NCBI RefSeq assembly: GCF_003610455.1
Contig: NZ_RAQK01000001.1
Span: forward strand, 1,364,001 to 1,428,000
Direction: 5' to 3'
Length of the DNA: 64,000 bases
From: Sulfitobacter guttiformis
GTDB taxonomy: Bacteria > Pseudomonadota > Alphaproteobacteria > Rhodobacterales > Rhodobacteraceae
In this document: one piece after another, positions 20,828 to 60,600 of the stretch
How the letters are laid out: each line of letters begins with the position of its first letter
How positions within the stretch are numbered: position 1 is the first letter of the stretch
Made by a program: the position numbers and the translations under genes
Notes under the pieces: generated by a model
What the model saw: the letters and a program-made list of their open reading frames with translations, nothing else
What the model was told of the DNA's origin: nothing
The model's database searches: none

Positions 20828-21055
20828 TTTGCGGCATAAAAAATTGCCGCATAAATATTCACAAAAACGAGCATGCGCCTCCAGTGCTAGAGCAGCTCTA
20901 ATGTCCAATTTTATATAACAACGGACACTAGTCGCAAAAAATTTGCCAATGAGGCATATGAATGCACGAATCATTTAGTGCGGCTTTTAAGCCTTGATTA
21001 AAAATGTTTTTTATCAGTCTGTTATGGCGCGCCACTTTGCAGAGGACAGCATAAG
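20828..21055 (+). repeat. Internal transposase-binding boxes at the left end
   Basis: Boxes ending in GCATA recur at 20828-20840, 20842-20855, 20941-20958 and 21036-21055. The third, ATTTGCCAATGAGGCATA, is 16/18 identical to the right terminus. Arrays of such boxes inside the ends are typical of TnsB sites. The first, second and fourth are weak matches. Confidence 0.45.
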
Positions 21056-21155: not shown

Positions 21156-22097
21156 TCATCCGTTAAGCGCAAGTAGTCTTTGCGGGTCGAACGCCTGTAA
21201 AAAGTCCGGTGCGGTAAAAGGTGAATATTGTTTTGGAAGACCTTTCTTCAAGGCAAACTGAGCGGCGAAATCTTGAACGTCCAACTGAGATTTCCCCGCC
21301 ACTTTTGCTTCGGCCAGCGTCTGAATCAAGAGTTCAATGACAAGACCCCATCGATGCGAACAAGCATGGTCGAGACGGGCCAAGAAATCTTGAGTCACAA
21401 TTTGCTCGATCTCAATGTCCACTTCATCGGCGAAAGCAAATAGAAGTTTGGTCAGCTGCTCCTGATCTCGTCGAATCTTGATTGTTGTGAAATGCACCGG
21501 GTCCACCAGTGCATCGAGCTGTTCATACGATTGAATGTATTCAGCCAACGACGGCACGCCGGACAAAATCATCATCAATGGCCAGCGTGGCTCTTTCATC
21601 ATCGACTTGAAACTGTCCAAAAATATCCTGTTCGACTTCGAACCTTCACCAAAGACGTGCTGACATTCATCATAGTGAATTCCTATGACGCCTTGACCAG
21701 CTGCTTGGTCGATCACTCTCTCCCAGATATACTCTTGGGTGCGGTTGCGCTGAAGATCATACCCAAGGGCTGTAAGGGTCTTTATCCCCAAGTCTTTGAA
21801 CGTCACTCGGCCCGAAAGAAGACAACTGACGATCTTCGCAGGCCGCCCGTCTGGCATGAGGGTTTCACTCGCGTTGAAGTCCCGGATCAGCTTCTTCAGC
21901 TCGCGTGATTTTCCCACCCGAGACTGCCCGGTGACAATCAACCCACGGACCTCCATGTCTTGGATCTCTTGGTGCAAATAGTACTCCTCTACGCATTTTT
22001 GGAAGGCCAGTTTTAGCGTCTTTGCACGTGGAAACTCCAAATGAGGTGCCTTGAGGCGTTTAACGATTGCGATCTTCTCCTCGTTCACAAATGTCAT
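21156..22097 (-). CDS. tnsC: TnsC/TniB-type transposition AAA+ ATPase
   Basis: 313 residues. Walker A is GQSRVGKS at 57-64; Walker B is GIHYDEC with D143-E144. The following segment (RIFLDSFKSMMKEPRWPLMMILSGVPSLAEYIQ) carries the sensor-1 pattern of TniB/TnsC proteins. In Tn7-type systems this ATPase bridges the target selector (TniQ/TnsD) and the transposase. At 313 residues it is a short, TniB-like form rather than the 555-residue Tn7 TnsC. Its start overlaps the tnsB stop (ATGA). It is the last gene of the operon, 485 bp from the left terminus. Confidence 0.9.
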   Translation of the reverse strand: MTFVNEEKIAIVKRLKAPHLEFPRAKTLKLAFQKCVEEYYLHQEIQDMEVRGLIVTGQSRVGKSRELKKLIRDFNASETLMPDGRPAKIVSCLLSGRVTFKDLGIKTLTALGYDLQRNRTQEYIWERVIDQAAGQGVIGIHYDECQHVFGEGSKSNRIFLDSFKSMMKEPRWPLMMILSGVPSLAEYIQSYEQLDALVDPVHFTTIKIRRDQEQLTKLLFAFADEVDIEIEQIVTQDFLARLDHACSHRWGLVIELLIQTLAEAKVAGKSQLDVQDFAAQFALKKGLPKQYSPFTAPDFLQAFDPQRLLALNG

Positions 22098-24403
22098 GAG
22101 AACTTACCGCCCTTCTTTGGACGACCGAGCGGTACTTGGCTTAAATCGCGTGGCTCAGCAGATTTTGGCCCGGCCGGAGTTATGCCATCATTGCCTTTGA
22201 AAGTCACTCCACCGTCGAGTTGAACAGCTGGGCTTTCAGAGTGGTTGGCTTCCTGATGATCGATTGCTGCGTTCCCGTCGCCTATCAGAAAGACTCCCGG
22301 ACCCTGCATGCTGGCAGTGAGGTCACCCGGACGAACAGTTTGACCACCTTCGGGCGCCCGAACGATACGGGCACCAGCAAAAACGTGCCGCGCCTTTATA
22401 CGGCACTCTTCGAAAGTCGAGTGGCTCCGGGTCAACCTGCGTTCGACACCGATCTGTTTGAGTAGGTCAAACCTCTGACGTCGAGTTGATGCGATCCGGT
22501 CTTCGTAAATTTCCGTGATGGCAGGATCTTCTCTGCGATGCGCCTCAGTGAGCTCAAGAACCTCGGGAATCGTTAGATCGGCGAAGGCCGTCACTTGAAG
22601 TTGGAGCCTGAACTCGCGCGCGACCCCAGGAATGATTGCGGTAGCATCGTTTACGTTTTCTGGATCAACGAAAACTGAAACCTTCGATACCGCGTGATCA
22701 TCAACGGCCACCTGAAACTCAGGCGAGTTAAACCAGATACCAGAGAGAACCCGGACACCCTCATCGTTCGGAGTGACTTCGAATTTCCAACCCAGATGAA
22801 TGCGCCGCTGATCAGCATCCATCATTTTGAACAGACCGCGTGTTTTGTTCAGCTCCTTAAGAACCTCGGCAGGGCGTCTGCCGCCCATCCCGACACCCAT
22901 GTGCCGCAAAGAAGGGTATTCATCAATGAAGAAGCGGGTCAGAATACCGTAAAGCTCATCAATATCGAGAAGTCCATTGGCATTGGAGTTGTAGCCAGGA
23001 AGCTCCCCCGCTTTCCGACCAGTATAGCCGTGGATCAATTTGATGAGCAGCGATTCGGTCGTACCGATCAGGCGCTCGACGTAGGGCTTGTCTGCCGATG
23101 CGTATGCTCTCACCGCAGCGTAGATTGCGGTGGTCCCCAAAAGACCCTCAACTACTGTCTTGTTTCGAAGCCCTACGCCGTTGTCAGTTTTAACTAAACC
23201 CAAGCCCATGGCCGGAGCTGGGTCGCCCTCACACCCGTATTTAATTTTTTCCTTTGTCTTGTCTCGGGTCGCCATCCTCAACAGCGCAAGTGTGGCTTCC
23301 GCCTTGGGCTTGTCGCTTACGACCCAAGCCAGCGGCATTCTGGTGGCAACATCAATCATCACAAGCAATGTCAGACGAGTTCTGATTTCTTTGTCGATCT
23401 CTTCGAGGGTTTGTTGGTCTTCATTCGACAGATTTTCCCAATACCCACGTTCTTTTGCAGACGATATCAGCGACAGCTTGCATTCGTCGGCTTCAACCAA
23501 CTCCCCGGGAAATAATCCCCGCAGATCTGTACTACCCCTGCCCCTTTTGTTGAGCGCATGGCGCTCACCCTTAGTCGCGACCAAAAACTCTGTTGGGTTG
23601 AGTAAGTACTGTTGGTGACGTTTCAACGTTTTGTGTGAAGGGACGACAAGTTTAGCCAGCCCATTTCGAATGCGACGGCCGTTCTCTTCGAATACCAGCA
23701 TCTCCAGATGATGGTGCACGTTCGAGACGGATGGACCTTTGAGGTCCAGACCGATTTCTTCCCAAGCTTGGGTCATCAACTGCAAGAGTGTCCAATCAAT
23801 CCGTTTGGTGTTGTTGCCCTTGAGATGATCTCGAGTTGCGAGTGCTGCGATAACGTCGTCATCAACCTCGAGCCTGTCAAATATTTGCAAATATTTCAGG
23901 ATTGTCCGACCGTCATAGAGAACCCACTCGTTGTTCTGGCCTCCGCGAAAGCCCTTAGGCCTGACCTTTTTACCAAAGATCTCTGTCGCAACCTTGCAAA
24001 TAAATTTGCGGTTGTCTGCATCGTTCAACAACGCCCCTGTAAGACGAAGGTCGGGCATGCCGTGTTCTCGGCGGAGCTTGGTTCGTAGCATCGCCGTTGC
24101 GCAACAGAAGGCATGATGAAACTGCCCACGTTCTTGCTGTGGCGGGGCAAGCTGCTCCGCCACCTTCAGGTTCCCGAGGCGCATTTCCAGCTCCGTAGAT
24201 GGCAATCCGGCGTCAGCCCCAATCTTCATGGCTGGGGATTTTTGGAGTTCGGCAAACTTGGAGAATGAGGTAACACCAACCTCACCCGTCTCCAGATTGA
24301 GCATCTCGTAGCCATTTTCTTGCATGGCGCAGATTGACATTTTTTCGTTGTAGAGTGTTATCTCTGTGCCCGCTGGATAATTATACTGTGGGACAAGGCT
24401 CAT
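22094..24403 (-). CDS. tnsB: TnsB/TniA-type DDE transposase (Mu/rve family)
   Basis: 769 residues from the ATG at 24403, which overlaps the tnsA stop as ATGA; the longer frame would run inside tnsA. The catalytic core shows VEADECKLSL (D306), LVKTDNGVGL (D407) and KPYVERLIGT (E443), a DD(35)E triad. A C-terminal beta-barrel/Mu-type region and a low-complexity tail ending in RPKKGGKFS follow. The N-terminal 250 residues should hold the end-binding helix-turn-helix domains. It cuts and joins the 3' transposon ends. It stands between tnsA and tnsC in one operon. Confidence 0.93.
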   Translation of the reverse strand: MSLVPQYNYPAGTEITLYNEKMSICAMQENGYEMLNLETGEVGVTSFSKFAELQKSPAMKIGADAGLPSTELEMRLGNLKVAEQLAPPQQERGQFHHAFCCATAMLRTKLRREHGMPDLRLTGALLNDADNRKFICKVATEIFGKKVRPKGFRGGQNNEWVLYDGRTILKYLQIFDRLEVDDDVIAALATRDHLKGNNTKRIDWTLLQLMTQAWEEIGLDLKGPSVSNVHHHLEMLVFEENGRRIRNGLAKLVVPSHKTLKRHQQYLLNPTEFLVATKGERHALNKRGRGSTDLRGLFPGELVEADECKLSLISSAKERGYWENLSNEDQQTLEEIDKEIRTRLTLLVMIDVATRMPLAWVVSDKPKAEATLALLRMATRDKTKEKIKYGCEGDPAPAMGLGLVKTDNGVGLRNKTVVEGLLGTTAIYAAVRAYASADKPYVERLIGTTESLLIKLIHGYTGRKAGELPGYNSNANGLLDIDELYGILTRFFIDEYPSLRHMGVGMGGRRPAEVLKELNKTRGLFKMMDADQRRIHLGWKFEVTPNDEGVRVLSGIWFNSPEFQVAVDDHAVSKVSVFVDPENVNDATAIIPGVAREFRLQLQVTAFADLTIPEVLELTEAHRREDPAITEIYEDRIASTRRQRFDLLKQIGVERRLTRSHSTFEECRIKARHVFAGARIVRAPEGGQTVRPGDLTASMQGPGVFLIGDGNAAIDHQEANHSESPAVQLDGGVTFKGNDGITPAGPKSAEPRDLSQVPLGRPKKGGKFS

Positions 24404-25146
24404 GCCGCCACCTCCACACGCGAAGTCTCGTGGATGACGTGATCCAAATTGGCGATCAATTTCTTGCGGGCGATGAGACGATAACAAGCACGGAAGACTC
24501 GCGACTGTGGCAGATCAACATGGGGGAATATATCCCTCATTTGCCAGATAGACTTCGTGCCCTCGATGGCTGACAGGGTGAGATCATCCGCCTCAGTATC
24601 GATCTGCTGCATGAGCTCATGCATCCGGAATAGATTTTCACGCCGCTGGCGAGAGTAGTCCGCCGCACTAACCACGATCATGTCGTTTGCAGAAGACGGC
24701 GGTGTCGCTCGACCAATGGCCGCAATTTCACGCCAGGTTTTTGGCTTATCCAAGCTCGCTTGGTTGCGGACGAACACAAGGCGACGATGCCCATTCCTGA
24801 GCGTGATTAGCAAATCGTGAGTGTATTCACGTGATTTCCCATCACACTGAAAACGAACGGTAAGTGGCTGAAATCTGACATCATAGATATCAGGGTCAAT
24901 CAGGAACTCCATTGACACAGCGGCTTCAGCCGCACTTTCGCAGATTCCGACCTTGAGTTTCCAATTGTTTGCGGGGGTTTTATAGGTCAACCAGACCCGG
25001 TGTGACGTCGAACTGCGGGAACCGGGGTTGCGCACCCCATCAAACGGCAGAACCCCGTGAATATCATCCAACTTAATCATTGGAGATTTCGCGAGCTTGG
25101 GTGGTGAGCAGGCAAACGTATCGTGGTCGATTACATCGTAGGACAT
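24400..25146 (-). CDS. tnsA: TnsA-like transposition protein with altered endonuclease motif
   Basis: 248 residues, first gene of the operon, with TnsA layout: an acidic helix (ESAAEAAVSMEFLIDPD, E70/E74), FQPLTVRFQ, then YTHDLLITL with D111 as the expected catalytic aspartate. Where the family usually has an E-x-K strand this protein reads LVFVRN, with Arg127 at the lysine position. The C-terminal part (about 165-240) resembles the TnsA winged-helix domain. In Tn7, TnsA cuts the 5' ends and loss of its activity gives cointegrates, so a weak or dead nuclease would matter. The family assignment rests on position plus motifs. Confidence 0.8.
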   Translation of the reverse strand: MSYDVIDHDTFACSPPKLAKSPMIKLDDIHGVLPFDGVRNPGSRSSTSHRVWLTYKTPANNWKLKVGICESAAEAAVSMEFLIDPDIYDVRFQPLTVRFQCDGKSREYTHDLLITLRNGHRRLVFVRNQASLDKPKTWREIAAIGRATPPSSANDMIVVSAADYSRQRRENLFRMHELMQQIDTEADDLTLSAIEGTKSIWQMRDIFPHVDLPQSRVFRACYRLIARKKLIANLDHVIHETSRVEVAA

Positions 25147-27860: not shown

Positions 27861-28892
27861 TCAGAAAGGAATGTTTTCAGTATCTGCCGATGCAGTTTCT
27901 GTCTCTTCAGGAGCTGGCAAACTTACCGACGTTTCCTGCAACCACTTATTTCGTTTCTGCCTGAGCATGTTCATCTGATCTGCGGCACGCATCCCAACGT
28001 CTGACTTTTGACCAACTATGTGGCGGACGGTACCGAGCTGGCTCATTAGGAGTTGCGCGCATGCGACCTTCTCCTCATTGGTCTCCGCTTCATGTAAATC
28101 CTTCCAATACCTTTTAATCCTAAGATTCAGCGAGTTGGGCGAAAGAAGATTCCGACCCACGACACCAATACCGGTTAAAATAACTGGGCGGTTTCCAGAT
28201 CTATAATTGATCTTGTGTGAGCGAAGGCCGCGCTCTCGAACAGCTTCCCTAATGCTGGTGACAACCTTACCCGGAATGAATTTCCCAGAAACGGTCAGAT
28301 CATCAACCCACAGAGAATGTCGCAACCCTCGCGCGTCGCATATATCGGAGATATTATCAAACATCGGCCGGTGGACTAAGGTGCAGAGAACGGGTGTCAA
28401 AGGTGATCCGAAGGAAACTATGCCGTCGACTGTGCTCAGGCGAGTTAGTAACCCTGCGACATCTTCGTACATACCGAGCTCGTCCACAAACCAACGATAA
28501 ACCATCGTTTCGGTGGTTGAGGGGTAGAACTGTTTCAAGTCGAGCGTCAGATACTGATCCTGATCAAGATGCAGCTCCGCATTATCGCGCTGACTTCGTT
28601 TCTTGCGCGGACTGAACAGGTAATTGGGCTGACGGACCTTGTTCAGATGAAATTTGAGACGCTCATGCGCCCCGCGCAATCTCGACACGGGATAGGCAAG
28701 ATCGCGAACCTTCCCGCCAATCTTCTCCTGTCGACGGACGATGAACTCGTCCTTGTAGTTGATCAATCGCTGGAGATCAGCCTTAGTTTCGCCCAACAAG
28801 GCGGCGACATCGCGCTGAGTTGGTTGCTGGGCAAAGGGAGAACGCTCGAGATCATATCTCTCATACTGGGGTGGTTTACTATTGCGCCGCAC
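27861..28892 (-). CDS. Retron-type reverse transcriptase
   Basis: 343 residues from a GTG start that overlaps the XRE gene by 14 bases. Polymerase motifs: LTLDLKQFYPS (D118), SFGSPLTPVLCTLVHRP (170-ish, substrate loop) and LWVDDLTVSG with W195-V-D197-D198 replacing the usual YxDD. Retron-specific features are present: NAELH at 104-108 (NAxxH motif, region X) and ILTG at 238-241 (VTG-like, region Y). Retron RTs make multicopy single-stranded DNA from an adjacent RNA and form antiphage systems with an effector. The RT is last in the operon: ncRNA, small membrane peptide, XRE protein, RT. Confidence 0.88.
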   Translation of the reverse strand: MRRNSKPPQYERYDLERSPFAQQPTQRDVAALLGETKADLQRLINYKDEFIVRRQEKIGGKVRDLAYPVSRLRGAHERLKFHLNKVRQPNYLFSPRKKRSQRDNAELHLDQDQYLTLDLKQFYPSTTETMVYRWFVDELGMYEDVAGLLTRLSTVDGIVSFGSPLTPVLCTLVHRPMFDNISDICDARGLRHSLWVDDLTVSGKFIPGKVVTSIREAVRERGLRSHKINYRSGNRPVILTGIGVVGRNLLSPNSLNLRIKRYWKDLHEAETNEEKVACAQLLMSQLGTVRHIVGQKSDVGMRAADQMNMLRQKRNKWLQETSVSLPAPEETETASADTENIPF

Positions 28893-29205
28893 CTGAAGTC
28901 TCCCTTGGAGAAAATGCCTCCAGTAGTTTCAATACGCGATTTGCGACGATGAGTTTTCCACGCTTCTGAACCGGCTCGCCTTCGAGTTCTTCAGCGAAGA
29001 ACATGAGCTGCGACATACGCACCCCAAGTCTCTCACTGTAACGCTCCAGAACGTCAATCGAGACCGATTTGGCGCTGCGTTCAATTTCCGAGATCATCGA
29101 CTGAGACAGTCCGAGCTCTTCAGACAACTCTGCCTGTGAGTATCCGTGATAGAGACGGATCAGGCGAAGGGCGTCATTTATCATTGGTCGTTTTACATCA
29201 GACAT
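28879..29205 (-). CDS. XRE-family helix-turn-helix protein of the retron-like locus
   Basis: 108 residues from the ATG at 29205, which has a strong ribosome site (GGAGGG); a longer frame to 29244 is unlikely. The HTH is QAELSEELGLSQSMISEIERSAKSVSIDVLERYSERLGV, in a Cro/cI-type domain at about 12-70. A 38-residue tail (GKLIVANRVLKLLEAF) follows. Retrons with small HTH accessory proteins are known as one class, so this may be the effector or its regulator. It overlaps the reverse-transcriptase start and lies 35 bp after the membrane peptide gene. Confidence 0.85.
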   Translation of the reverse strand: MSDVKRPMINDALRLIRLYHGYSQAELSEELGLSQSMISEIERSAKSVSIDVLERYSERLGVRMSQLMFFAEELEGEPVQKRGKLIVANRVLKLLEAFSPRETSGAAQ

Positions 29206-29240
29206 CTTTCCCTCCGATCGGCTATTTTCGAGGTCGCCGC

Positions 29241-29381
29241 TCACTCAAGGCCCATAAACCAGAACCAAAAACGAACAACATATTGTATTGCCTGGCCCAA
29301 CAGGACGATGACTTTCAAAAGCCACCCGTAGTTCCTGCCAGACCGGCGGCGACGCCGCTGGTGACGATTTCGTTTGCTCAT
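29241..29381 (-). CDS. Tiny basic single-pass membrane peptide in the retron-like locus
   Basis: 46 residues. The first 17 are strongly basic (MSKRNRHQRRRRRSGRN); the rest forms one hydrophobic helix (WLLKVIVLLGQAIQYVVRFWFWF). GAAGGA lies nine bases before the ATG. The layout resembles small membrane toxins or membrane-active effectors, but no family is recognised. Its start codon lies inside the proposed a2 strand of the non-coding RNA. It may be the toxic effector of the system; this is inference. Confidence 0.5.
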   Translation of the reverse strand: MSKRNRHQRRRRRSGRNYGWLLKVIVLLGQAIQYVVRFWFWFMGLE

Positions 29382-29606
29382 CCTAAAGTATCCTTCTAAC
29401 CCACCGGCGGAAGTGCCGGTGCCCATTGGGAAGAAGGTCAGTTCAGCGACGATTTACCTCGAACATGCCGCACCCGAGCCCAGCGGGTGCGGCGCGCTGC
29501 CGCGGTCCCTGCCGACGAACGGGATTGAGACGGAGACCATTGGTCTCCACAGGGCTCATGGCCCCAACTCCAGACGGGTTCTGCTCCTTGGATGAACAAT
29601 CCTCAC
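29374..29606 (-). ncRNA. Candidate retron msr-msd RNA
   Basis: The minus-strand transcript from about 29606 is strongly structured. The proposed a1 is TTGTTCATCCAAGG (29599-29586). It can pair with GGATGAGCAA (29383-29374) over 10 bp with one G-U. Directly after a1 comes AGC, where G at 29584 would be the branching guanosine, as in known retrons. Hairpins follow: GGGC/GCCC, GGAGAC/GTCTCC (29548-29532), CGCACCC/GGGTGCG (about 29493-29467) and CACCGGC/GCCGGTG (29421-29402). The exact msd limits cannot be read. Confidence 0.55.
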
Positions 29607-29612
29607 GCTTAC

Positions 29613-29641
29613 TAACTACAAGATTCGAACCGAGCTGTCAA
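29613..29641 (-). promoter_or_regulatory. Sigma-70-like promoter of the retron-like locus
   Basis: On the minus strand TTGACA (29641-29636), a 17-bp spacer and TAGTTA (29618-29613). A perfect 9-bp AT-rich dyad, ATAAAATAT/ATATTTTAT, lies just upstream at 29642-29670 and could be an operator. Confidence 0.55.
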
Positions 29642-29670
29642 ATAAAATATCACCAGGAGTAATATTTTAT
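29642..29670. promoter_or_regulatory. AT-rich dyad upstream of the retron promoter
   Basis: ATAAAATAT and ATATTTTAT are perfectly complementary, separated by 11 bases, and touch the -35 box. A plausible site for the XRE protein of the locus. Confidence 0.4.
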
Positions 29671-58147: not shown

Positions 58148-58473
58148 CTCCGCCCTGATCTACAGCTGCGGTCTATAGCCGTGTTTTGTCAGCAGCCGAA
58201 CTTTGCCTATTTTTCTAACAAAAGCCGCTGAAGTGATCCAAATCACCCCAACGGCCAAGCTTTGCCTGCAAAATGGACAACGAATTCACCAAAACGGTCA
58301 ATTTATGGTTGTCGATTCATTAAGTATCCATGCCGTCAACAAAGCCACTTGGAATACCCTTAGCATGCGCAAGTCATGCACCCTTCACACTAATGCCAGC
58401 CTCAGGTGCCTGATCCGGAAACTTGATACGTCATACCTTTCGCATTCGCCTGCACAGACCTATATTATCCAAT
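58148..58473. other. Spacer before tniQ
   Basis: No gene; presumed tniQ promoter region. The tniQ start within it is uncertain. Confidence 0.45.
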
Positions 58474-60342
58474 GTGCTAAGTCCTCTTCCCCTACGTCCC
58501 GTGCCTATCCACAGGGAGACGATACTATCGTTCCTGTCGCGGATAGCAGCGATAAATGGTGTGTCGGCTGCCGACCTTGCAATGGATATGGGTTTTTCAA
58601 TCAAGAAGATTATCAACCTTGAGGAAAATGCTGTGCGCGGTCTTGCTGAATGCGGCGGCCTAACTGACGAGCAAATTCAAGAGCTCGTGTCTTGGACCGG
58701 CCAAGCAGTGGGAGGTGTCCGGATGGCATTTCGCGATGAGATCTTCGTCTCAAGAGCGGTCAGGAACCCAATCATGCGGGGCTGCCCGATTTGCCTTCGC
58801 GAGGATGCCAGTAACCATCCCTCGCGACCGATCAGCCGAATGGCGATGCGAGGAGACTGGCAGTTGCGAGAACTCAATCTTTGCATCGCGCATCAGCACC
58901 CCATAGTTCCGCTTTGGAAAAACGATCTGCCAACTGATAGGTTCGATATTTCGAAACGACTCGCAGAAATCTTGCCAGCAGTGCTCGAAGGCGGATTGGA
59001 CCAGCTGCGTGTGACACCTTCGCCCTACGATCTTTGGCTTAGCAATCGGCTGGACACCGGATTAGATGATACTTGGCTCGCTGATAAATCTCTCTATGCA
59101 GCGACAACTTTTTGTAAACTTTTGGGGGTAGAGCTTCAGCAATTGCAATCTTTTCCGGATGAGATTGGATATGCGGTTGAAGCCACTGCTCATGATGTTG
59201 GGTTTGATGTCGCAAGCCAGGGCGAGGTCAGCATACGGGCCGCGTTCAACTCACTTGCTGCTCGCGCGGATGGTCAAAATGACGAGCCTAAAAAGGCTTT
59301 TGGTAAGCTTTACTCAGACTTGAGCCAAGCTCATGTAGATAAGCACGAGTTTGCACCATTCCGGAAACTTCTGCGCGATTGTATCATAGACATTTGGCCT
59401 GTCGCCGCCGACGAGAACATGCTCGGGGTAACCCAGAAAGAAAGGCTGCTGCACTCAATCAAAAGCGCAGCGCAGGAGACCGGTATCGGAGCAGGCCTGC
59501 TCGACCAATTCTTGGTTCATGCAGGCGCGATATCCGCAGAGGACAAACGTCCCGCGGCCCGAAAGACCTTTGACGCAAAGGCATACCAAGAGCTTCTTGC
59601 AGAAATCCCGACGTTGGTCGGCTCTTTGGAGATGCAACAACGCATTGGGGCAACACAACATCAACTTGCGTCTTTGGCAGAGGATAAGGTCCTACGTCCA
59701 CGGATCGACATACCAACGATCAAAGCTCCTTGGCGGGTTGCTGATGGCATGGCTCTGATTGCCGAACTCCACGGGCTGGCGAGCTCAATCCAGCGGAATG
59801 ATAGACGCTGGGAAACGATACAAATGGCCAGGCGCCGATCCGATTTGAGCGTGGGTACACTCATCGCGGCTGCCCGGTCGCGGCAGCTTCAGGTTGGGCA
59901 CCGTGAGGATCTCTGGGGATACGCCGGGTTCAGCGTTTTGAAGTCTGAGGTCGATGCTTTGAAATCGTTACGTAAAGATCAGCAGGAGGATTTCTTGATC
60001 AGCGCCGCGGCGTTTGCACGATCCGTCGGGATGCGTCGCGAAGGTTGGTTCGAGAAGTTCATGGCGGCAGGGCACATCACTGGAACACGAATGCCACACC
60101 CGAAAATTGGAGGGATGCGGATTTATATCTCCAAAGAAGATATCGCAGAATTTCACGCGCGCTTCGTGACTGCCTCGACCATGGAACGAGAATTCGGACT
60201 CCACAAACGAACACTGCTCGCAAGGCTGAAAGCGGCGCATGTGAAGCCTTTCGCCCCGAACGCTCAGGATTTTGGAACGCTCTATCTACGTGAGGACGTC
60301 GAAGCGGTGATCAAGCCTGCGCGGATAGTCTCGCGAAAGTAA
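58474..60342 (+). CDS. tniQ: TniQ/TnsD-like target-selection protein
   Basis: About 622 residues. I chose the GTG at 58474, so the protein opens LSPLPLRPVPIHRETILSFLSRIAAINGVS, the usual TniQ beginning; a TTG at 58423 is the other candidate. A zinc-finger region carries CPIC (MRGCPICLRED) and WQLRELNLCIAHQHPI. The C-terminal 150 residues hold two winged-helix-like segments (SAAAFARSVGMRREGWFEKFMAAGHI and TASTMEREFGLHKRTLLARLKAAHV). Such proteins recognise the attachment site and recruit TnsC. Its position next to the right end and tRNA-Arg suggests the tRNA region is its target. Confidence 0.85.
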   Translation: MLSPLPLRPVPIHRETILSFLSRIAAINGVSAADLAMDMGFSIKKIINLEENAVRGLAECGGLTDEQIQELVSWTGQAVGGVRMAFRDEIFVSRAVRNPIMRGCPICLREDASNHPSRPISRMAMRGDWQLRELNLCIAHQHPIVPLWKNDLPTDRFDISKRLAEILPAVLEGGLDQLRVTPSPYDLWLSNRLDTGLDDTWLADKSLYAATTFCKLLGVELQQLQSFPDEIGYAVEATAHDVGFDVASQGEVSIRAAFNSLAARADGQNDEPKKAFGKLYSDLSQAHVDKHEFAPFRKLLRDCIIDIWPVAADENMLGVTQKERLLHSIKSAAQETGIGAGLLDQFLVHAGAISAEDKRPAARKTFDAKAYQELLAEIPTLVGSLEMQQRIGATQHQLASLAEDKVLRPRIDIPTIKAPWRVADGMALIAELHGLASSIQRNDRRWETIQMARRRSDLSVGTLIAAARSRQLQVGHREDLWGYAGFSVLKSEVDALKSLRKDQQEDFLISAAAFARSVGMRREGWFEKFMAAGHITGTRMPHPKIGGMRIYISKEDIAEFHARFVTASTMEREFGLHKRTLLARLKAAHVKPFAPNAQDFGTLYLREDVEAVIKPARIVSRK

Positions 60343-60523: not shown

Positions 60524-60600
60524 TGGTGATCCCGGCAGGATTCGAACCTGCAACCTGCCCCTTAGGAGGGGGCTGCTCTATCCAGTTGAGCCACGGGACC
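60524..60600 (-). tRNA. tRNA-Arg (anticodon CCT)
   Basis: 77 bases including an encoded CCA end. Acceptor GGTCCCG pairs with CGGGATC in a near-perfect stem (one G-T type position). The D stem is GCTC/GAGC, the anticodon stem GCCCC/GGGGC with loop CTCCTAA, and the T arm is standard with TTCGAATC. It is intact and adjacent to the transposon right end, the probable attachment site. Confidence 0.97.

What the first reader, a model, noticed from the sequence alone, without database searches (positions are those of the whole stretch)
27861..29641. Retron-like locus carried as transposon cargo, with an RNA candidate, tiny membrane peptide, XRE protein and RT
The reverse transcriptase has the retron motifs NAxxH (104-108), LTG (239-241) and a WVDD catalytic site in place of YxDD. 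Upstream, on the same strand, stand a promoter, a strongly structured RNA candidate, a 46-aa Arg-rich single-helix peptide and an overlapping XRE protein. Retrons with HTH accessory proteins are known. The added basic membrane peptide and the WVDD site make this one worth examining as a distinct antiphage design.
Basis: partly seen in the sequence, partly recalled or inferred. Interest (0 to 1): 0.85.

Follow-up and report, generated by a model that had tools for sequence, protein, structure and literature searches.

The report
Retron whose RNA locks a peptide
This is a bacterial retron (a reverse-transcriptase module that probably defends against phages) of the known type VI, and comparison with its relatives suggests that its RNA doubles as a lock on the making of a small membrane-active peptide, which is probably the weapon.

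Summary
The locus is real: promoter, structured RNA, 46-aa basic peptide, XRE protein and RT, inside a Tn7-like element. RT and XRE match PADLOC's type VI retron models best and the RT lies with type VI RTs. So it is a type VI retron, not a new system. The peptide is no local addition: a basic one-helix ORF passes a strict rule in 69 of 74 dereplicated type VI loci (1.8% in shuffles) and is also present in six HTH-less loci (two lineages). WVDD is fixed in this clade (10 of 10 loci).

New here: (1) an operator-like palindrome at the -35 box; (2) a covarying hairpin whose 3' arm abuts or overlaps the peptide's Shine-Dalgarno site (its SD helix aligns poorly in the window's clade); (3) in the window's clade only, pairing of the RNA's 5' end with the peptide's start codon (moderate support).

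Most likely: XRE is an autorepressor, the RNA is both retron template and translational lock, the peptide is the membrane effector. msDNA, toxicity and defence could not be tested. A small auxiliary protein of type VI is already in print (PMC8541194); I saw no description of the lock in my searches.

The parts
29644..29668 (-). Operator-like palindrome AAAATATTAC-TCCTG-GTGATATTTT (9 of 10 arm positions complementary) ending 2 bases before the -35 box; proposed XRE site
   Evidence: Sequence; aligned palindrome at the same place in 6 relatives; the window itself was not scored
29613..29641 (-). Promoter: TTGACA 29641-29636, 17 nt, TAGTTA 29618-29613
   Evidence: Sequence; TTGAC/TTGAA aligned in all 7 clade loci; not tested
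29382..29606 (-). Leader RNA (putative retron RNA, msr-msd); both ends are estimates
   Evidence: DNA identity 0.92-0.93 to two relatives over 29606-29440; covarying helices; fold z -2.36
29590..29599 (-). 5' segment TTGTTCATCC, proposed a1, pairs with 29383-29374 (GGATGAGCAA), which holds the peptide start codon
   Evidence: 91.9% of cells paired in 7 loci, slid 37-45%, 18 of 500 shuffles as high
29532..29548 (-). Short hairpin GGAGACC/GGTCTCC (msr-like)
   Evidence: 95.8% paired, 4 of 7 pairs doubly changed
29467..29493 (-). Ten-pair hairpin GCCGCACCCG/CGGGTGCGGC (msd-like)
   Evidence: 100% paired, 2 of 10 pairs doubly changed
29392..29437 (-). Shine-Dalgarno hairpin: CCTTCT (29437-29432) with AGAAGG (29397-29392), inner stem CACCGGC/GCCGGTG (29421-29415 with 29408-29402)
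   Evidence: Inner stem 93.5% paired, 5 of 7 pairs doubly changed; outer SD stem only 66.7% in the structure-blind alignment, register shifts by eye; equivalent hairpins in two other subclades
29241..29381 (-). 46-aa basic single-helix peptide; proposed membrane effector
   Evidence: Same kind of ORF in 69 of 74 dereplicated type VI loci and in six loci without HTH
28879..29205 (-). XRE protein (HTH_VI), taken from the ATG at 29205; the listed ORF opens at GTG 29244
   Evidence: PADLOC HTH_VI 1.3e-30, Pfam HTH_3 above cut-off
27861..28892 (-). Retron type VI reverse transcriptase, 343 aa, WVDD
   Evidence: PADLOC RT_VI 3.5e-58; tree

Best explanation
A type VI retron whose effector is the small basic peptide. 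One promoter, repressed by the XRE protein bound to a palindrome at the -35 box, makes one transcript: leader RNA, peptide, XRE, RT. The RNA has two jobs. Its msr-msd part is (by analogy) the RT's template for msDNA; its 3' end folds so that the peptide's Shine-Dalgarno site lies in or against a stem, and in this clade the RNA's 5' end also pairs with the start codon. In a healthy cell little peptide is made. When phage infection disturbs the RT-RNA-msDNA complex, the lock opens, the peptide is translated, acts on the inner membrane and stops the infected cell. Supported here by comparison: type VI membership, conserved peptide, conserved hairpin at the SD, operator. Inferred only: msDNA synthesis, XRE binding, toxicity, trigger, unlocking.
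For: RT_VI and HTH_VI best models; RT inside the type VI group. Peptide rule met in 69 of 74 dereplicated loci against 1.8% in shuffles and 14 of 659 other ORF starts; a basic hydrophobic small ORF precedes or overlaps the RT in six HTH-less loci, two lineages. SD hairpin: 0 of 500 shuffles reach the covariation score in three alignments. SD less open than with shuffled upstream sequence in 83% of 77 loci, p 6e-10, and than the HTH gene's SD, n 45, p 1e-3. Peptide gene dS 0.31-0.51 against over 2.6 in HTH and RT genes, as expected if RNA and coding functions overlap. Operator-like motif in 36 of 77 loci, palindromes near -35 above shuffles.
Against: Nothing shows that the peptide is toxic or the RT active; WVDD is an unusual site. 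The SD stem itself is only 66.7% paired in the window-clade alignment. Start-codon pairing is not seen family-wide, and the peptide's start codon is not less open than that of HTH (0.47 against 0.44). The window's own SD is 0.37 unpaired against 0.47 shuffled, and in L156 and L147 it is more open than shuffled. Many peptides are only amphipathic (17-residue hydropathy 5th percentile 0.60), so membrane insertion is uncertain. dN/dS is no clean proof of coding: one of four shifted-frame comparisons (0.36) was lower than the in-frame value for the same pair (0.52).
Confidence: 0.5

Rival explanations
1. The XRE protein is the effector or sensor held by the RT-msDNA complex, as the type's HTH label suggests; released, it changes host or phage gene expression. 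The peptide is an accessory, for example a membrane anchor for the complex.
For: XRE is present next to the RT in 121 of 154 loci and overlaps the RT gene here; in other retrons msDNA binds DNA-binding accessory proteins (type IX Kva2 winged helix, passages of PMC13405049).
Against: Six RT loci inside the type VI group have the peptide but no HTH match; an operator-like motif at the retron's own promoter gives XRE an ordinary job.
Confidence: 0.2
2. The hairpin at the SD is simply the 3' end of the retron RNA (part of msd or a2), kept for reverse transcription; SD occlusion is a side effect and the peptide is made constitutively, as a regulator, anchor or antitoxin rather than a toxin.
For: In subclades A and B the hairpin directly follows a proposed a2 (by eye); in the window clade the helix at the start codon would close the whole RNA, as an a1:a2 stem does.
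Against: Low SD accessibility over 77 loci; the 3' arm stays beside the SD in three clades while its sequence changes.
Confidence: 0.22
3. The small ORF is a leader peptide whose translation controls the downstream XRE and RT genes by coupling or attenuation; its sequence matters little.
For: Short ORF directly upstream, good SD, close to the next gene.
Against: Charge pattern and hydrophobic helix are kept across very diverged loci; no terminator-like alternative was sought.
Confidence: 0.08

Closest known systems
Type VI retrons (class of Mestre et al. 2020, not held, recalled and as cited in PMC8541194; PADLOC RT_VI and HTH_VI), e.g. in Peduovirus P22H1, Klebsiella phage ST147-VIM1phi7.1, Burkholderia phage KS5, Shewanella phage MuM16-1
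   Same: RT and XRE family, gene order, RT/HTH overlap, small protein upstream
   Different: This clade sits on its own long branch, has WVDD instead of YxDD, a divergent operator and start-codon pairing by the RNA's 5' end
Retron Ec48 (type IV, two-transmembrane effector; recalled)
   Same: A membrane effector in a retron would be the same strategy
   Different: Effector there is a larger two-helix protein; I recall no translational lock
Type I toxin-antitoxin pairs such as TisB/IstR-1 (recalled)
   Same: Small hydrophobic basic peptide held back by structure in its own mRNA leader
   Different: No separate antisense RNA was looked for or found; here an RT, an XRE protein and a retron-like leader belong to the unit

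Membership tests
Retron | Retron RT with NAxxH and VTG-like motifs | tested here: met
   NAxxH 104-108, LTG 239-241; PDB and PADLOC matches. Motif meaning recalled
Retron | YxDD catalytic site | tested here: not met
   WVDD; W in 10 of 10 clade loci, Y in nearly all other loci where the motif could be read, one LQ; the DD pair is kept
Retron | Structured non-coding RNA beside the RT with a1/a2 repeats | tested here: inconclusive
   Conserved covarying RNA upstream; a1:a2 assignment is tentative; no Rfam match
Retron | Makes msDNA | not testable with these tools
   Needs RNA/DNA from cells
Retron type VI | RT in the type VI group | tested here: met
   RT_VI 3.5e-58, next model 4.3e-33; quick tree, branch 99 (careful tree not finished)
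Retron type VI | XRE/HTH gene next to the RT | tested here: met
   HTH_VI 1.3e-30
Retron type VI | Small auxiliary protein | tested here: met
   description in PMC8541194 (passages)
Retron type VI | Phage defence | not testable with these tools
   Needs a plaque assay
Type I toxin-antitoxin system | Antisense RNA antitoxin | not tested
   No search for an antisense promoter was made
Tn7-like transposon (carrier) | TnsA, TnsB, TnsC-like and TniQ genes, inverted ends | tested here: met
   TniB and TniQ above Pfam cut-offs, TnsA (26.0 of 26.5) and rve (23.0 of 32.6) below; inverted 14-mer at 20944 and 60507; target duplication not examined

The most novel reading that the evidence does not exclude
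Type VI retrons are translation-gated suicide switches: the RNA that is reverse-transcribed is itself the 5' leader of a membrane-toxin mRNA, and the state of the retron complex (template copied, msDNA damaged, RNA cut) decides whether the ribosome reaches the toxin. In the window's clade the retron's closing a1:a2 stem would contain the toxin's start codon, so that fitness for reverse transcription and silence of the toxin are one structure, and the msDNA would begin as an antisense copy of the toxin's ribosome-binding site.
Probability: 0.25. Interest if true: 0.88.

Novelty: new variant of a known kind. Interest (0 to 1): 0.62.

Why it matters
Type VI retrons are filed under their HTH gene, and I found no established effector for them in the papers seen. 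A conserved basic one-helix peptide that remains in loci without the HTH, behind a hairpin at its ribosome site, names a concrete effector and a concrete switch. Both can be tested in laboratory E. coli: a related type VI retron is in 88 of 5,426 complete E. coli genomes. If right, it adds release of translation to the ways retrons are known to act, which are release or activation of a finished protein (e.g. Ec86 and Ec83 as told in PMC12948488, passages).

Tried and rejected
Group II intron or DGR RT: not supported, the best models and PDB matches are retron RTs. Rfam retron RNA: none at gathering score. Pairing of upstream RNA with the start codon over 77 loci (RNAduplex): mean z -0.15, no signal, so it is claimed for the window clade only. 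Window RT alone against viral contigs: 8 pattern matches, no relative. WVDD as a sign of decay: rejected, it is fixed in the clade. Replacement by HipA/DUF3037 as in Retron-Sda1 (section 10 of PMC12548924 read): not the case here. Covariance-model hits in L149, L044 and L011 lie away from the peptide start.

Rows dropped: of 154 loci 121 had an adjacent HTH. 117 of 121 gave a peptide pick; L064, L080 and L154 are cut at the record end inside or at the HTH gene, and in L061 the frame is present but reads on. With L155-L157 added these were dereplicated to 78; L087 (masked bases) was dropped, leaving 77. 74 of them entered (L155-L157 not), with misses L062, L067, L072, L097, L106. One search scored 58 of 77; the others had no promoter call or too short a flank, the window among them. 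Of 12 type VI-group loci without HTH match, six (L041, L042, L054, L055, L104, L091) are read as real absences; the others lie at record ends or are unclear (L026). L041, L042, L054, L055 and L104 form one group in the tree, so these are two lineages. The operator motif is missing in 5 of 5 of those tested, but since only 36 of 77 HTH loci carry that exact motif this is weak evidence for joint loss.

Full report
WHAT IS THERE. On the minus strand, reading from 29668 to 27861, lie a palindrome, a sigma-70-like promoter, about 225 nt of structured RNA, a 46-aa ORF, an XRE ORF and an RT ORF. The unit is sharply bounded. Against its two closest relatives (L155, L156) DNA identity is about 0.35 upstream of 29680 and falls to similar values downstream of about 27880, but is 0.92-0.93 in 29606-29440, 0.90-0.93 in the SD hairpin, 0.82-0.84 in the peptide gene, 0.78-0.79 in the XRE gene and 0.71 in the RT gene. 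The RNA is the most conserved part.

MOBILE CONTEXT. The unit lies inside a Tn7-like element: TnsC/TniB-like, TnsB-like and TnsA-like genes at 21156-25146, TniQ at 58423-60342, a tRNA-Arg at 60524-60600 just outside, and an inverted TGCCAATGRGGCAT at 20944 and 60507. With 2 mismatches allowed this 14-mer has 2 matches where 1.5 are expected by chance, but both are exact and the match extends to 16 of 18. TnsA and TnsB matches are below Pfam's cut-offs. Cargo includes two heavy-metal P-type ATPases. The window's genome has one copy of the RT at E up to 0.001.

FAMILY. RT_VI is PADLOC's best model for the RT (3.5e-58, next 4.3e-33) and HTH_VI for the XRE protein (1.3e-30). Pfam RVT_1 and the NCBIfam retron models match the RT below their cut-offs. 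Of 8 PDB sequences matched, 7 are named retron RTs (Ec86, Ec67, Ec83, Kva2) and 1 an RNA-directed DNA polymerase. In a quick maximum-likelihood tree of 110 RTs, 91 rows, with every HTH-bearing locus in the tree and the window's clade, lie on one side of a branch with support 99; the nine WVDD rows have one origin (97) and with L035 form a group (100) on a branch of 1.45. W stands before the catalytic VDD in 10 of 10 clade loci (window, L146-L148, L155-L158, L173, L174) and in no other locus whose motif could be read; the scans demanded Y, so they could not show it.

THE PEPTIDE. Nine of ten first relatives had a small basic ORF just before the HTH gene; the tenth, L011, has one as well. A pick was possible in 117 of 121 HTH-bearing loci. 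With a fixed rule (ATG, SD of at least 4 nt, 30-85 aa, net charge at least +1, 17-residue hydropathy at least 0.5, stop in the right place) 69 of 74 dereplicated loci pass, against 1.8% of shuffles and 14 of 659 other ORF starts. Median length 54 aa, net charge +8, hydrophobic segment towards the C-terminus. In the window's clade dN/dS in frame is 0.21-0.58; three of four shifted-frame comparisons are higher and one (0.36) is lower than the in-frame value of its pair, so this test alone is weak. dS of the peptide gene (0.31-0.51) is far below HTH and RT (over 2.6): its synonymous sites carry another constraint. RefSeq lists such an ORF as a hypothetical protein in an E. coli genome and two plasmids. 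In six loci of two lineages inside the type VI group (L041, L042, L054, L055, L104; L091) no HTH match exists in the fetched stretch, and a basic hydrophobic small ORF precedes or overlaps the RT. Loss of XRE with retention of the peptide is what one expects if the peptide is the partner that matters.

THE OPERATOR. TTCGCT-N3-AGCGAA or a close form lies 275-351 nt upstream of the peptide in 36 of 77 dereplicated loci and in 0 of 5 HTH-less loci tested (weak, since only half of the HTH loci have the exact motif). Palindromes near the -35 box exceed shuffles (7.16 against 6.08 of 9, p 3e-8, 58 of 77 loci scored). The window's clade has its own version ending at the -35 box. This fits autorepression.

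THE LOCK. In the window's clade (7 sequences) six helices give 92.1% paired cells (86.5 in shuffles), 15 pairs changed on both sides (8.1) and a covariation score reached by 0 of 500 shuffles; the number of pair types is not above shuffles (326 of 500), and slid versions give 39-47% paired. The inner stem of the SD hairpin is strong (93.5%, 5 of 7 pairs doubly changed). The SD/anti-SD stem is 66.7% in that structure-blind alignment; by eye the register shifts (CTTGTC/GACAAG in L147, TCCTC/GAGGA in L148 and L157). The stem of RNA 5' end and start codon is 91.9% paired (slid 37-45%), with 18 of 500 shuffles as high and no excess of doubly changed pairs (2 against 1.2): moderate support. In subclade B the hairpin has 99.2% paired cells and 9 of 16 doubly changed pairs, in subclade A 77.0% and 6 of 9 (21 of 500 shuffles reach the latter, 0 the covariation score). 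Folding shows the peptide's SD less open (0.30) than with shuffled upstream sequence (0.44; lower in 83% of 77 loci, p 6e-10) and than the HTH gene's SD (0.43, n 45, p 1e-3); the start codon is not less open than that of HTH. A covariance model from subclade B finds hairpins placed exactly at the peptide start in L043, L073, L004, L025 and L039, and three hits elsewhere, in 74 sources. Start-codon pairing across the family was not found.

HOW IT MOST LIKELY WORKS. XRE keeps transcription low; the leader serves the RT and hides the peptide's ribosome site; phage attack on the complex frees it; the peptide damages the membrane. The first two steps rest on comparative evidence, the last two are inference from what is generally known of retrons and type I toxins (recalled).

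NOVELTY. 'Type VI retron' occurs in one paper of the library, PMC8541194; its passages say that such systems join RT, DNA-binding and small auxiliary proteins, and that a transmembrane segment was predicted for one of three such small proteins. No paper held retron, msDNA, toxin and Shine-Dalgarno together. The listings showed me no paper on such a lock, but I read passages or sections of only five papers. Mestre et al. 2020 is not held, nor are most subscription papers and preprints, so priority is open.

Noticed in passing
window 20944-60507: Tn7-like element of about 39.6 kb with inverted ends beside a tRNA-Arg gene, carrying metal-resistance genes besides the retron.
   Followed up: partly
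L041, L042, L054, L055, L104, L091 (just upstream of the RT): RT loci inside the type VI group with no HTH gene but still with a basic hydrophobic small ORF next to the RT: a natural test of which partner is needed.
   Followed up: partly
L175 3004-4432; E. coli genomes: A type VI retron related to L129 is in 88 of 5,426 complete E. coli genomes; in the one examined it lies between a replication gene and the portal gene of a P2-like prophage.
   Followed up: partly
L043, L044, L040, L053, 40-60 nt upstream of the peptide: The SD hairpin has a purine-rich asymmetric inner loop (GA on both strands) that resembles a kink-turn; judged by eye only.
   Followed up: no
L149 3983-4942: A TIR-domain gene directly follows a type VI retron on a Microvirga plasmid, perhaps an added effector.
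   Followed up: no
window 29360-29321: Within the peptide gene the arginine-rich stretch is 0.93-0.95 identical in DNA to two relatives, suggesting that a conserved nucleic-acid element overlaps the ORF.
   Followed up: no
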